Shown here one piece after another: positions 15,900 to 41,884 of a stretch of DNA of 64,000 nucleotides (position 1 is its first letter; the number at the start of each line of letters is the position of its first letter). The position numbers and the translations under genes are program-made. The stretch spans positions 1 through 64,000 of the forward strand of contig NZ_JACIIV010000006.1 of assembly GCF_014205635.1 (NCBI RefSeq), given 5' to 3'. The notes under the pieces were generated by a model. The model saw only the letters and a list, made by a program, of their open reading frames with translations. It made no database searches and had not been told where the DNA came from. Origin of the DNA: Polymorphobacter multimanifer. GTDB taxonomy: Bacteria > Pseudomonadota > Alphaproteobacteria > Sphingomonadales > Sphingomonadaceae.

Positions 15900-15930
15900 T
15901 GATGGGGCCGGAGGTTCTTTTTGAAGAAAG

Positions 15931-15966
15931 GGCCTCCGGCGGCTGGGGCCTTGGGCCCCAGACCCC
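15931..15966 (+). repeat. REP-like palindromic element, copy 1
   Basis: GGCCTCCGGCGGCTGGGGCC is followed by TTGGGCCCCAGACCCC. The core CTGGGGCC-TTG-GGCCCCAG folds into a hairpin. Related copies lie at 16067, 25542, 27672, 31028, 41848 and 44512. Confidence 0.8.
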
Positions 15967-16066
15967 GTTTTGGAGGCGATGCTTTGTTCGGCGGGGTTCG
16001 CGCGCAGCGCAGTTGAATGCCTGCGGCGCGGGACCCGACTCCTCGGCTTGTACCGGCAAAATTCCA

Positions 16067-16101
16067 GGGGTCTGGGGCCGTCGGCCCCAGCCGCCGGAGG
16101 C
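16067..16101 (-). repeat. REP-like palindromic element, copy 2 (inverted)
   Basis: GGGGTCTGGGGCCGTCGGCC continues to CCGCCGGAGGC. It is the reverse orientation of copy 1 and forms a REPIN-like doublet with it. Confidence 0.8.
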
Positions 16102-16193
16102 ATCTTTGCCTCGCCGAGAGCGGTGCGCGCGCTTCCAGCGGGCGCAGGTGGCGGCTATTGCGGTGAAGCGCTTTGGGTGAAGGAGGGGATGTG

Positions 16194-21507: not shown

Positions 21508-21885
21508 TCGCGCGGCTTTGTCAGCCGGGTGTCGGCTTTGGGGCTGTCGGGCACCCGTCTGATCCTGTTCAAAGGGTGGGCGCGCTTCATGCTGTTTGTG
21601 CGGCGGCCGGCAAAGGCTGTGGAGCCGAAAGCGTCATAAGGGGGCTTGATTGTATGGCGCGGGTGGGTTGTGGGGGAGTGTTCGGGCAGTGATGGCGTCT
21701 GCCCGGTTGGCAGCGCACCCCTTGCGGACACCGTTCAGCTTTGGACAGATACCCCCGGCACGTTCTAACTCGCAAGGTTCCGACCTGTCACATTTTTAGC
21801 ATCGTAATGCGACAGATCGTGTAAATTTGCGTAGAATGCTACATGCCGAAAGGCGATTCATGTTGGGGGTGAGTTTGTTCGGCCT
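21508..21885. other. Gap upstream of the ATPase/protease island
   Basis: There is no gene. The composition shifts from GC-rich to more balanced around 21730-21780, marking the left edge of the island. The last 100 bases hold an inverted repeat (21785-21815) and a promoter-like pair. Confidence 0.6.
21785..21837 (+). promoter_or_regulatory. Candidate promoter and operator of the ietAS-like pair
   Basis: CTGTCACAT at 21785-21793 and ATGCGACAG at 21807-21815 form an inverted repeat matching at 8 of 9 positions. GCGACA (21809-21814) and TAGAAT (21832-21837) are spaced 17 bases, a plausible -35/-10 pair. The operator overlaps the -35 element, so binding would repress. Confidence 0.45.
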
Positions 21886-22917
21886 ATGACTCGCAGCGAT
21901 TTAGTTGTCTCGCTCGTACGCGCTGGCGCAGCCGGCGATAGAGAAATGCTGCGTGCGACTGCAGAAGCCTTGATGGCGGATGAACGTGCAAAAAATCATC
22001 ACATCGTTGCCGATCGCCTGCAGCGTGCCTTGTCTGCAGTACCAATAACGCCGCCGGCGCTTACAAGTGCGCAGTTGCATGCGACGTCAAATAACGGACG
22101 AGATACGATACTAGAACTCGTCCCCCGGATACGCCTAGACGAATTGATTCTCCCGCTGCCGGTCAGAGAGAGTGGCCGCCAGTTAGTTAGTGAGCATGCG
22201 CGAGCAGATGTGCTGCGGGCTCATGGCTATGAACCTCGTCATCGCATTTTGCTGTCGGGACCACCAGGAAATGGCAAGACATCCTTTGCCGAAGGGGTGG
22301 CGGAAGCCCTAGCGCTGCCATTTTTTGTTGTCCGGTATGATGCGTTGATTGGCAGTTATCTAGGCGAAACCAACGCGCGGCTTCGGCGGCTTTTCGATTA
22401 TGTCAGGACTCAGCCATGCGTGTTGTTTTTCGATGAATTCGATGCGATCGGCAAAGAGCGGGGAGACACTCACGAGACAGGTGAGATCAAGCGTGTCGTG
22501 TCATTCCTTTTGCAGCAACTTGACCAGCTTCCAAGCTACGTTCTCGTCGTTGCGGCGACTAATCACGGGGAGCTACTCGATAGTGCTGTTTGGCGCCGCT
22601 TTCAAATGAGGCTGTCGTTTCCTTCTCCGGATCGGAAAATGATCACGGCATTTTTAGATCAAATTATTGAACGCTGGCCGGAACGTCCTAGATTGCAGCC
22701 GTCGCGAATTGCAGGCAAGCTTGGGTATGTAAGCTATGCCGAAGCACTTGATTTTTGTCAGAACGTGCGTCGGCGGCAAATTTTGGGTTTGGGGGAGTTA
22801 GGCATTGAAGAAGCGTTGCAACTGGAAATTGGCCTGTGGTCTTCTCGCGTAACGCCTGAAGCACTCAATGCCGAGCGATCCCACCAAGCCGCTGCTGAGG
22901 CTCGTTCCTCAAGCTGA
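21886..22917 (+). CDS. ietA: AAA+ ATPase of an IetA/IetS-like ATPase-protease system
   Basis: This 343-residue protein has about 110 helical residues before a single AAA+ module. Walker A is GPPGNGKT (residues 125-132), Walker B is FFDEFDAIG (Asp183-Glu184), sensor 1 is VAATNHGE, and a RRF arginine pair follows. The next gene, a subtilisin-like protease, starts inside its last 50 bases. This ATPase-plus-subtilase pair matches IetA/IetS, described first as a stability and incompatibility module of an Agrobacterium Ti plasmid and later as antiphage. There the ATPase acts as antidote or controller of the protease. Codon use is less GC-rich than its neighbours, suggesting acquisition. Confidence 0.8.
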   Translation: MTRSDLVVSLVRAGAAGDREMLRATAEALMADERAKNHHIVADRLQRALSAVPITPPALTSAQLHATSNNGRDTILELVPRIRLDELILPLPVRESGRQLVSEHARADVLRAHGYEPRHRILLSGPPGNGKTSFAEGVAEALALPFFVVRYDALIGSYLGETNARLRRLFDYVRTQPCVLFFDEFDAIGKERGDTHETGEIKRVVSFLLQQLDQLPSYVLVVAATNHGELLDSAVWRRFQMRLSFPSPDRKMITAFLDQIIERWPERPRLQPSRIAGKLGYVSYAEALDFCQNVRRRQILGLGELGIEEALQLEIGLWSSRVTPEALNAERSHQAAAEARSSS

Positions 22918-25393
22918 CCAACCCCGTCCTACCGGCGTGCAACGAGCGATGCCTCGTCCCGAGCCCTTTGATGTCGCTCGTCAGCGCGGCACTGTGGGGC
23001 CGAAATTTGCGCGCTTAGCGCAAGTCCTCGATCGTGGAGCAAACCCGATCGAGCTTCGCGCCGATCCAACTGCACTGGCACCAGAACGGCTGTTGGTATT
23101 TGAAGTTCGCGGGGCGGTTAGTGCGTTCGCCACTGCCATTCGGCGTGTGCCGGGCTTGGAGCTGGTCGATGAAGAAGAACTGTCTTCTGATGAAGATGAC
23201 AAAGAGCCCGTTGCCTACCTCATGATGCCCGACATTGAGGCGTTGCGGCAGCTTGAGTCGCTTTGGCGGCGCTGGCTGCGAGGGCAGCTTGTTATGGGCG
23301 AAACGCCTTGGCGTGATGTTTTTCAGACGCTTCGTGAACTCCGTACATGGGGGCCACAGGATCGCGTTCAGCCTGCTGACGCGGCGCAACTTGCTGATGA
23401 AATCGAAGGCCGGGGTGAAGACGAGTTTGTCCGGTTAGAAATTGAACTCATTTTTCGTGCCCAGCGCGCTTTTGGTGTCCGCAGCGAAGATGACGTTCGG
23501 ACAGACGTAATTAGGCGCGGTGGCCGAGTCATCTCCTCCGCTCGAATTGACGACATCGCATACCACGCATTGTTGGTTGATCTCACGGTCCGAAGCGTTC
23601 GCGAAATGATAGAACAGAGGGTCGGGGGAATCCTTGGCCTTGAAGCCGTAATGCATATTCGGCCCCAAAGCTCAGCGACTAGCATTGAAACTGCGGACCC
23701 TGAGCCCTCAGCAGAGCTGGTCGCTGGCGCCACAGCATTGGGAGAGCCCATTGCTGCATTGTTAGACGGAGTACCGGTGGCTGCTCACCCACTCGTTAAT
23801 CGGCACGTAGTTCTTGACGACGCGTTCGACCTCGAACGCGGAGCTTTAGTCGCCAACCGTATGCATGGTACGGCTATGGCTTCACTTATCATACACGGAG
23901 ATCGCAATCGTCCAGAAGCTCCGATCCCGCGACGGGTGCACGTTGTTCCTGTCCTTGGCAATCAGGACGCTTTTCCCGAGGATCGGCTTATTGTAGACTT
24001 GATCTACCTCGCAATTGTCCGGATGCGAGCAGGAGACGCGCCGACCGCTCCAAACGTGATTCTGGTTAACTTATCCCTAGGCAATAAGCGGCGGCCCTTT
24101 CATGGCCAGCTCTCGGCTTGGGCAAGGTTGCTTGATCGGCTGGCCTATCAGTTTGGCGTGCTCTTCTTAGTCAGTGCAGGCAATTCTAGCGGCTCGTTCG
24201 GGGTGCCAGGATTCATTAGCCGCGCAGAGCTCGAGGCCGCAAATGGTCGTGCTCGTGCAGTCGCTATTGTGCGAGCCTTGGGAGCGATTGTTGCAGACCG
24301 TCGACTGTTTGCGCCCGCAGAGACTGTTAATGGGATCACTGTTGGTGCGTGCAATGATGATGCAATTGACCCAGCGGCTCGGGTCGCAGCGCGCGTCAAT
24401 GTTGACCCATTCCCTGGTCATAGGCTTGCAAATCCGTCGAGCACCCTAGGACCGGGCTTCGCGCGTTCGGTGAAGCCCGATATTCTTATGCCGGGCAGTC
24501 GTGAGCATGTGATGGTGGTACGCAATCACGATCATATCGATGTCCGGCCGGTCGGACCCTCGCGATTTGCGGGACTCAAAGTCGCTGCGCCACCGGCTGC
24601 AGGCCGAGAAAGTTCCGAAACCTTTACTTGCGGTACAAGCGCAGCCACCGCGCTTGCCACGCGTACGTGTCATCGAATCCACGACGCACTAGAGGCTGCA
24701 TACGGCGAACTCTTCACTAGTCTTGTACAACATCAACGCGCGGTGCTACTTAAGGCCTTGCTCGTCCATCCTGCTACTTGGCCAGCGGAGTCTGCGGCTC
24801 TAATTCGTGAGGTGTTAGGTCCTGCTGATGGGCGTCAGCATGTCCGGCAGAAAGACAACATCCGGCGCTTTTTGGGTTTTGGTTGGGTCGATGCCGATGA
24901 GGCCGTAGCCTGTGCGGAGGACCGTGCAACGTTTTGGGCCACCGGCACTCTTCATGCCAACAGGATTGTCAATGTAACGGTGCCGATACCTCAGGCCATC
25001 TCAGGCCAAGCGCGACTTCACTCCCTCTCTGCAACCTTAGCATGGTTTACCCCGGTAGCTCCGGGACGTAAGCGTTATCGGACGTGTCGGCTGAGGATTT
25101 TGGAGCCAACCGGTCTTGGTGATCTTACAGTCGGAGCTCATAGCGACCAGCCCGATACCAATCAGACTAATCGTGGTACCGTGTTTACACGCTGTTGGCG
25201 CGGCGACCGCGCGCCTATCGTGGGCCCTAATCACAGCATAGTTTTGTCAATCCAGCGAGATCCAGATCAGGGGTCGGCGGTGGACGACCCAATCCCGTTC
25301 GGCCTTGCGGTTACCATCGCAATGCCTGGAGTTGTTGGAATATACGAACAGGTGCGACAACGCCTTCAACCCCAAGTGCGCGCCAGCACATGA
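22868..25393 (+). CDS. ietS: Subtilisin-like S8 serine protease of an IetA/IetS-like system
   Basis: This 841-residue protein has no signal peptide, so it acts in the cytoplasm. Residues 1-290 form an uncharacterised N-terminal region with an acidic patch (DEEELSSDEDDKE). The S8 domain follows with a full catalytic set: Asp300 in LLDGVP, His333 in MHGTAMAS, oxyanion Asn439 in SAGNSSG and Ser591 in CGTSAAT. After about residue 680 comes a beta-rich C-terminal domain. ATG 22868 overlaps the ATPase gene by 50 bases, indicating coupled translation. By analogy with IetS it would be toxic when released from ATPase control, for example on infection or loss of the locus. Confidence 0.82.
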   Translation: MPSDPTKPLLRLVPQADQPRPTGVQRAMPRPEPFDVARQRGTVGPKFARLAQVLDRGANPIELRADPTALAPERLLVFEVRGAVSAFATAIRRVPGLELVDEEELSSDEDDKEPVAYLMMPDIEALRQLESLWRRWLRGQLVMGETPWRDVFQTLRELRTWGPQDRVQPADAAQLADEIEGRGEDEFVRLEIELIFRAQRAFGVRSEDDVRTDVIRRGGRVISSARIDDIAYHALLVDLTVRSVREMIEQRVGGILGLEAVMHIRPQSSATSIETADPEPSAELVAGATALGEPIAALLDGVPVAAHPLVNRHVVLDDAFDLERGALVANRMHGTAMASLIIHGDRNRPEAPIPRRVHVVPVLGNQDAFPEDRLIVDLIYLAIVRMRAGDAPTAPNVILVNLSLGNKRRPFHGQLSAWARLLDRLAYQFGVLFLVSAGNSSGSFGVPGFISRAELEAANGRARAVAIVRALGAIVADRRLFAPAETVNGITVGACNDDAIDPAARVAARVNVDPFPGHRLANPSSTLGPGFARSVKPDILMPGSREHVMVVRNHDHIDVRPVGPSRFAGLKVAAPPAAGRESSETFTCGTSAATALATRTCHRIHDALEAAYGELFTSLVQHQRAVLLKALLVHPATWPAESAALIREVLGPADGRQHVRQKDNIRRFLGFGWVDADEAVACAEDRATFWATGTLHANRIVNVTVPIPQAISGQARLHSLSATLAWFTPVAPGRKRYRTCRLRILEPTGLGDLTVGAHSDQPDTNQTNRGTVFTRCWRGDRAPIVGPNHSIVLSIQRDPDQGSAVDDPIPFGLAVTIAMPGVVGIYEQVRQRLQPQVRAST

Positions 25394-25541: not shown

Positions 25542-25576
25542 GGGGTCTGGGGCCTGAGGCCCCAGCCGCCGGAGGC
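25542..25576 (-). repeat. REP-like palindromic element, copy 3
   Basis: GGGGTCTGGGGCCTGAGGCC continues to CCGCCGGAGGC. It lies in the convergent gap between the protease gene and trcR, and may act as a bidirectional terminator. It also marks the return to host-like composition. Confidence 0.8.
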
Positions 25577-41847: not shown

Positions 41848-41884
41848 GGCCTCCGGCGGCCGGGGCCTCAGGCCCCGGACCCCT
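41848..41884 (+). repeat. REP-like palindromic element, copy 6
   Basis: GGCCTCCGGCGGCCGGGGCC is followed by TCAGGCCCCGGACCCCTT. The core CCGGGGCC-TCA-GGCCCCGG is a strong hairpin with a short T pair after it. Confidence 0.8.

What the first reader, a model, noticed from the sequence alone, without database searches (positions are those of the whole stretch)
21785..25393. IetA/IetS-like ATPase plus subtilisin protease island in an alphaproteobacterial chromosome
An AAA+ ATPase and a cytoplasmic S8 protease overlap by 50 bases. Walker A and B, and the protease residues Asp300, His333, Asn439 and Ser591, are all intact. The stretch is visibly less GC-rich than both flanks. The pair matches IetAS, known as a plasmid stability module and as an antiphage system. 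The large N-terminal region of the protease (about 290 residues) has no family I recognise and may be the trigger or substrate-recognition part. A chromosomal copy beside trcR suggests a defence or addiction role rather than plasmid maintenance.
Basis: partly seen in the sequence, partly recalled or inferred. Interest (0 to 1): 0.85.

Follow-up and report, generated by a model that had tools for sequence, protein, structure and literature searches.

The report
Acquired IetAS protease defence gene pair
A bacterium has picked up a two-gene module, a cutting enzyme plus the motor protein thought to keep it in check, of a known kind reported to act against viruses and to keep mobile DNA in place; the gene pair is ordinary for its kind, but its protease has an unexplained double front domain that can now be tested.

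Summary
ietA (21886-22917) and ietS (22868-25393) overlap by 50 bases; ATP-binding motifs and Asp300, His333, Asn439, Ser591 are intact. PADLOC profiles name them IetA (8e-141) and IetS (1e-274) over nearly their whole length. Both score far below NCBIfam's cut-offs for the antiphage IteA/IteS equivalogs: a divergent branch, already profiled, not a new kind.

The pair looks acquired: third-position GC 0.50-0.52 against 0.74-0.90 in four nearby genes; absent from the 10 other same-genus genomes searched and from 20 same-genus trcR loci. DNA similarity to its two closest relatives covers the operon only. Some relatives sit beside recombinases, Argonaute and CBASS genes, favouring defence.

What I add: the roughly 290-residue front of IetS is predicted (pLDDT 91) to hold two ferredoxin-like domains, the second in the place of a subtilisin prodomain; sequence profiles do not confirm this. 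Relatives of the protease are toxic alone and neutralised by the ATPase (PMC5006074, PMC8562856, PMC6755753), so IetA is the probable brake. Trigger and substrate are unknown.

The parts
21886..22917 (+). ietA: 343-aa AAA ATPase, N-terminal helices (res 3-51), flexible linker (53-68), one AAA module; putative antitoxin/regulator
   Evidence: PADLOC IetA PDLC04232 E 7.9e-141; Pfam AAA 3.5e-31; AF2 pLDDT 82; p97/FtsH/proteasome ATPase folds
22258..22281 (+). Walker A (GPPGNGKT, res 125-132)
   Evidence: G125, P126, P127, G128, G130, K131, T132 invariant in 39 IetA, N129 in at least 90%
22354..22371 (+). SYLGET, res 157-162, aligns with the WFGES stretch of p97 D2 (pore loop 1 by recall)
   Evidence: alignment; LGET in 39 of 39, residue 158 Tyr in 34, Phe in 4, Asn in 1
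22420..22443 (+). Walker B (VLFFDEFD, res 179-186)
   Evidence: F182, D183, E184, F185 invariant
22594..22599 (+). R237-R238, candidate arginine fingers
   Evidence: 39 of 39 IetA; align near the two arginines of p97 D2 ('arginine finger' is recalled)
22868..25393 (+). ietS: 841-aa S8 (subtilisin) protease, putative toxin/effector; no N-terminal hydrophobic stretch (taken as cytoplasmic)
   Evidence: PADLOC IetS PDLC04233 E 9.8e-275 over 6-839; Pfam Peptidase_S8 3.6e-15; best 19-residue Kyte-Doolittle mean in the first 60 residues 0.05 (no signal-peptide program was run)
22868..22917 (+). 50-base ietA/ietS overlap (translational coupling is inferred)
   Evidence: by estimated starts the pair overlaps in 90 of 94 relatives, by exactly 50 bases in 20
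23081..23353 (+). IetS N1, res 72-162: predicted ferredoxin-like domain (beta-alpha-beta-beta-alpha-beta)
   Evidence: E76-80 H87-92 E97-104 E115-121 H123-137 (H146-153) E155-160; no Pfam or PDB sequence match of note
23423..23671 (+). IetS N2, res 186-268: second predicted ferredoxin-like domain, directly before the protease, ending in (I)RPQS
   Evidence: E187-194 H200-216 E220-227 E232-240 H241-248 E261-266; no Pfam or PDB sequence match of note; P266 63, Q267 61, S268 54, R265 50 of 64
23672..23740 (+). variable linker res 269-291 between N2 and protease
   Evidence: low conservation in the 22 of 64 rows printed; lower pLDDT
23741..24847 (+). S8 catalytic domain, about res 292-660, with D300, H333, N439, S591
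24917..25390 (+). C-terminal beta-rich domain, about res 684-841
   Evidence: strands E686-695 to E809-818

Best explanation
This is a horizontally acquired chromosomal IetAS module. IetS is an intracellular subtilisin-type protease that acts as the effector: it harms the cell (or an invader) when unrestrained. IetA is a threading-type AAA ATPase made just before it from an overlapping gene; it binds IetS and holds or remodels it so that it stays harmless. Disturbance of IetA, its supply or its ATP cycle by phage infection, or loss of the genes, frees IetS to cut cell or phage proteins, giving abortive infection in the first case and addiction in the second. The two ferredoxin-like domains at the front of IetS are the most likely surface on which IetA acts; the second sits where subtilisins carry their prodomain. 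Shown here: gene content, motifs, pairing, signs of acquisition, predicted folds. Shown by others on relatives: toxicity of the protease alone and neutralisation by the ATPase. Inferred: the IetA-IetS contact, its site, the trigger, the substrates and that this copy defends.
For: Family. Pairing: an adjacent upstream ietA in 94 of 98 loci with an IetS ORF (100 loci examined; 2 gave no IetS ORF; the 4 without ietA have under 400 bases upstream). Catalytic residues identical in 64 of 64 IetS; dN/dS near 0.05 for both genes. Toxicity and neutralisation in relatives: SgiT/SgiA in E. coli (PMC5006074, section 4 read); T133/A132 in E. coli and M. capricolum (PMC8562856, abstract and passages); ATPase gene not removable unless the protease gene is lost or mutated (PMC6755753, section 8 read). 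Threading-motor motifs. Front domains: AF2 pLDDT 91.1, pTM 0.92; best PDB folds are subtilases whose entries include the prodomain, ProN-Tk-SP E 2.3e-20 (TM 0.39 by query, 0.60 by target) and PCSK9 8.4e-14. Defence context: 143 ORFs beside 25 relatives match 47 PADLOC families at 1e-10, 143 control ORFs match 2; the closest relative's locus (L070) has an Argonaute-like gene about 1.2 kb downstream of ietS, L081 an Argonaute with a REase-type partner, L093 a CBASS cyclase.
Against: No phage, toxicity or binding data for this copy. No other defence gene was recognised beside it; Pfam was run on seven neighbouring ORFs and PADLOC only on the 24 window ORFs that fell into the control draw. Relatives are frequent on plasmids (91 records), which fits addiction as well. 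SgiAT gave no post-segregational killing from its own promoter (PMC5006074), and B. subtilis tests of the mycoplasma pair were inconclusive (PMC8562856). The prodomain reading has no sequence support, and toxicity of relatives' IetS alone argues against a protease kept silent by its own prodomain. The control ORFs come mostly from a conserved core region, and one protein can match many models, so 47 to 2 overstates the enrichment.
Confidence: 0.6

Rival explanations
1. Plain addiction/stability module: the pair is a selfish relic of a plasmid or island that now only stabilises its own stretch of chromosome.
For: 91 plasmid records carry IetS relatives, 47 of them typed conjugative; the four plasmid regions viewed hold integrases, transposases and TA modules; maintenance of SGI1 by sgiAT is the title claim of PMC5006074, and plasmid stability that of the pTiC58 paper (seen as a citation only).
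Against: Neighbours of some genome relatives include Argonaute, CBASS and other defence families; no mobile gene was seen next to the pair here for it to stabilise.
Confidence: 0.2
2. ATP-fed protease: IetA unfolds and threads selected (for instance phage) proteins into IetS, like ClpXP with a subtilisin, and IetA is a partner in attack rather than a brake.
For: IetA keeps the pore-loop, Walker and arginine motifs of threading motors and is closest in fold to p97/FtsH/proteasome ATPases.
Against: In relatives the protease is toxic without the ATPase and harmless with it, the reverse of what a strictly ATPase-fed protease would show.
Confidence: 0.17
3. Core housekeeping pair of this lineage.
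For: Strong purifying selection.
Against: IetS matched in 13 of 397 family genomes, the own one included, and in none of the 10 other same-genus genomes searched; no match beside trcR in 20 same-genus loci; foreign GC3.
Confidence: 0.01

Closest known systems
IetAS as profiled in PADLOC (IetA PDLC04231/04232, IetS PDLC04233/04234)
   Same: Both proteins match nearly end to end, E 8e-141 and 1e-274.
   Different: No difference was found; the models' source loci were not seen.
NCBIfam IteA NF042959 / IteS NF042956, described as antiphage (Gao et al. 2020 is recalled as the source; paper not held)
   Same: Same two families, clear similarity.
   Different: 226 bits against a cut-off of 510, and 64 against 900: not the same orthologue group.
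ietA/ietS of pTiC58 (Yamamoto 2009; not held, seen only as a citation) and sgiAT of SGI1 (PMC5006074)
   Same: AAA ATPase antitoxin gene with a subtilisin toxin gene.
   Different: Those are on a plasmid and a mobilizable island; their sequences were not compared here.
Mycoplasma T133/A132 (PMC8562856, PMC6755753)
   Same: Chromosomal, ATPase (353 aa) upstream of an S8 protease (757 aa), toxin/antitoxin behaviour shown.
   Different: Different phylum, shorter protease; not aligned here.
Prodomain-carrying subtilases (Tk-SP 3afg, PCSK9)
   Same: Top structural matches of the IetS model; a ferredoxin-like domain precedes the S8 domain, and a further domain follows (domain layout of these entries partly recalled).
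   Different: IetS has a second ferredoxin-like domain in front, no recognised I9 sequence, and an AAA partner.

Membership tests
IetAS (broad family, PADLOC) | AAA ATPase matching IetA profiles | tested here: met
   E 7.9e-141, residues 1-326 of 343
IetAS (broad family, PADLOC) | S8 protease matching IetS profiles | tested here: met
   E 9.8e-275, residues 6-839 of 841
IetAS (broad family, PADLOC) | ietA directly upstream of ietS, same strand | tested here: met
   same in 94 of 98 relatives with an IetS ORF
IetAS (broad family, PADLOC) | Intact protease residues and ATP-binding motifs | tested here: met
IetAS (broad family, PADLOC) | Protease toxic alone, neutralised by the ATPase | not testable with these tools
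   shown for relatives only
IetAS (broad family, PADLOC) | Antiphage activity or plasmid stabilisation | not testable with these tools
   needs an experiment
NCBIfam IteA/IteS equivalogs | Scores above the curated cut-offs | tested here: not met
   226.4 of 510 bits; 63.7 of 900 bits; not filed as this equivalog
I9-prodomain subtilase (zymogen) | Ferredoxin-like domain just before the S8 domain | tested here: met
   order of strands and helices in the model, and Foldseek top hits; predicted only, coordinates could not be inspected
I9-prodomain subtilase (zymogen) | Inhibitor_I9 sequence family | tested here: not met
   not among the 14 families matched at E up to 1 by 54 members; PDB profile search gave only one chain at E 1.2, a ribonuclease H; not filed as a member
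I9-prodomain subtilase (zymogen) | Self-cleavage between prodomain and protease | not testable with these tools
   needs purified protein

The most novel reading that the evidence does not exclude
IetS is a cytoplasmic proprotease with a doubled front domain: the second ferredoxin-like domain is a prodomain kept in place, with the conserved RPQS stretch at its end near the active site, and the AAA motor IetA works on the first domain to set whether the prodomain blocks or leaves the protease. A motor-controlled subtilisin switch would be a new way of arming a bacterial immune protease.
Probability: 0.25. Interest if true: 0.65.

Novelty: new member of a known kind. Interest (0 to 1): 0.35.

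Why it matters
How IetAS senses phage and what IetS cuts did not turn up in my paper searches (four papers opened, the rest seen as listings; subscription papers and preprints are mostly not held). PMC9958689 (2023, passages) says the mechanism is still to be described. A confident fold for the unexplained front of IetS, present across 64 relatives, gives direct mutants to make. The find itself, one more acquired copy, is ordinary.

Tried and rejected
Third gene of the operon: an ORF of 197-198 aa in 4 loci (137 aa in a fifth) follows ietS at 19-30 bases, and another kind (9 ORFs of 68-185 aa in 8 loci, 7 of the 9 at 1-19 bases) in rhizobial-type loci; one protein of each kind was scanned, no Pfam match. 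No such gene was recognised at the window locus, so I do not count it to the module. Common operator before ietA: only the two closest relatives share the last 60 or so bases, and the palindrome seen in L070 is incomplete in the window (by eye). Integration marks: no direct repeat of 12 bases or more links the two edges (each edge alone). N1 and N2 as a sequence duplication: no profile similarity, so 'tandem' is structural only. Sequence route to I9: negative. RAYT transposase for the repeat element: none found. Rfam on the window: 0 matches. No phage record holds an IetS relative at E 1e-5, although 20 loci came from viral contigs; I did not check whether these contigs are true viruses.

The empty-site evidence is weaker than wished: only 1 of 20 same-genus trcR loci (G379) showed the phosphatase-side gene, 216 bases from the trcR match, and it lacks the cupin gene too; several of the other loci end near trcR. 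So I cannot tell whether cupin and ietAS came or went together; the cupin has native GC3, 0.87.
Full report
Observation. Walker A and B and the protease residues Asp300, His333, Asn439, Ser591 are present. The four protease residues are identical in 64 of 64 aligned IetS proteins, and the core ATPase motifs in 39 of 39 IetA proteins.

Identity. PADLOC gives IetA E 7.9e-141 (residues 1-326) and IetS E 9.8e-275 (residues 6-839). Pfam gives AAA and Peptidase_S8. NCBIfam's antiphage equivalogs match but far below cut-off: 226 of 510 bits and 64 of 900. So it is a member of the broad IetAS family, on a branch that PADLOC already models, not the orthologue group that NCBIfam names for antiphage activity.

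Acquisition. GC is 56% against 66% for the rest of the window; GC3 is 0.50 (ietA) and 0.52 (ietS) against cupin 0.87, trcR 0.90 and two further genes 0.74 and 0.77; of 805 sliding windows over 84 kb none that does not overlap the operon is as low. IetS is matched in 13 of 397 genomes of the family, the own genome included, and in none of the 10 other same-genus genomes in that draw. The trcR flank is matched throughout the 24 genus genomes searched, weakly in one, but none of 20 fetched same-genus trcR loci has a DNA match of 150 bases or more to the ietAS stretch; one, G379, has the phosphatase-side gene 216 bases from the trcR match, without cupin or ietAS. The closest relatives, Sphingopyxis indica (83% IetS identity) and an alphaproteobacterium (80%), align at DNA level by BLAST from window base 21850/21851 to 25387/25380 only, plus a 37-base repeat element in one. 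The quick IetS tree joins the window with these two (support 100) and places, for instance, a Thiocapsa sequence among Paracoccus and two Nitrospira sequences among alphaproteobacteria, as expected of a mobile cassette; the tool's own caveat is that this is no proof of transfer. Two relatives found under handles G183 and G363 have the contig lengths of Croceibacterium mercuriale and Croceicoccus mobilis records, so the window's family is probably that of the sphingomonads and erythrobacters; the exact organism is not known to me.

Module. Of 100 related loci, 98 gave an IetS ORF and 94 of these have ietA next to it upstream on the same strand; the other 4 have under 400 bases upstream. By estimated starts 90 of the 94 overlap, 20 of them by exactly 50 bases. 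No third gene is general. dN/dS is about 0.04-0.06 for both genes against L070 and L071; dS of 1.7-2.2 is near saturation, so read it as strong constraint, not a precise ratio.

Folds. IetS with 64 sequences: pLDDT 91.1, pTM 0.92. The front region shows beta-alpha-beta-beta-alpha-beta twice, residues 76-160 and 187-266, then a variable linker, the S8 domain and a beta-rich C-terminal domain. That this order is the ferredoxin-like and subtilisin-prodomain order is my knowledge of the folds. Foldseek's best PDB matches are Tk-SP with its prodomain (3afg, E 2.3e-20, TM 0.39 by query and 0.60 by target) and PCSK9 (8.4e-14); at E 1e-4 to 1e-2 come microcompartment shell proteins and acetohydroxyacid synthase regulatory subunits, which I recall as ferredoxin-like; the output does not show which part of IetS they match. 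Against this: 54 members of each front domain match no inhibitor family in Pfam, no PDB sequence below E 0.9, nor each other, and I could not inspect coordinates. IetA with 39 sequences: pLDDT 82, closest to p97, FtsH and proteasome ATPases; SYLGET lines up with the WFGES stretch of p97 D2 and the two arginines lie at its RpgR; residue 158 is aromatic in 38 of 39. That these are pore loop and arginine fingers is recalled knowledge.

Context of relatives. IetS relatives lie in 91 plasmid records, in no phage record and in 20 viral-contig loci. Four plasmid regions show integrases, transposases or TA modules. Among 143 ORFs flanking 25 relatives, 47 PADLOC families are matched at 1e-10 (25 shown), against 2 among 143 control ORFs; families are not genes, several models hit the same protein, and the control is mainly core DNA. 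Of 20 of these ORFs that I picked by length and scanned singly, 5 matched: a borderline MzaB (E 8e-11) in L073, Argonaute in L070, Argonaute and a REase-type partner in L081, a CBASS cyclase in L093; 15 did not. Pfam shows transposases and integrases among the flanking ORFs (25 of 81 families shown) and none among the 25 of 55 families shown for the control.

Mechanism. From relatives: expressing SgiT cut transformation 100- to 1000-fold and SgiA prevented this, while the operon from its own promoter gave no post-segregational killing (PMC5006074, section 4); T133 lowered E. coli counts by 3-5 logs and A132 neutralised it, while B. subtilis tests were inconclusive (PMC8562856, passages); in a minimal mycoplasma the ATPase gene could not be removed unless the protease gene was lost or mutated (PMC6755753, section 8). 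So IetA as brake and IetS as effector is the best reading for this copy. The trigger, the substrate and the contact site are inference. The prodomain idea must live with the fact that IetS relatives are toxic alone: if N2 is a prodomain it must be a folding aid or a switch, not a lock.

Verdict. Observation confirmed, interpretation supported, system already known; one new lead, the doubled ferredoxin-like front of IetS. Interest 0.35.

Noticed in passing
window 25542-25576; also 15923-15966, 16066-16106, 41849-41884: A palindromic element of about 35 bases with some 60 places in the own genome (62 rows with itself, the last few weak), about 20 of them forming inverted pairs within 300 bases by my count of that listing; REPIN-like. 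No Y1 transposase family (PF01797) was found in the genome, so what spreads it is unclear. A similar repeat follows ietS in relative L071.
   Followed up: partly
L081:12533-13123, L171:10533-11129, L096:12533-13090: Unknown genes directly after ietS: one kind in 5 loci, another kind in 8 loci; one protein of each kind had no Pfam match. Possible lineage-specific third component.
   Followed up: partly
L070:13720-15219; L081:13459-16339; L093:14505-15728: Short-Argonaute-type and CBASS cyclase genes within about 1-2 kb of ietS in relatives.
   Followed up: partly
L172:4439-6708: On a Neorhizobium plasmid, multiubiquitin, ThiF-like and DUF6527 genes lie just before ietA.
   Followed up: no
L100:371-1342 and loci L082, L083, L085, L101, L149: One cluster of ArdC-like antirestriction genes within about 500 bases of the pair in six loci, five of them upstream; only the L100 protein was scanned.
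   Followed up: no
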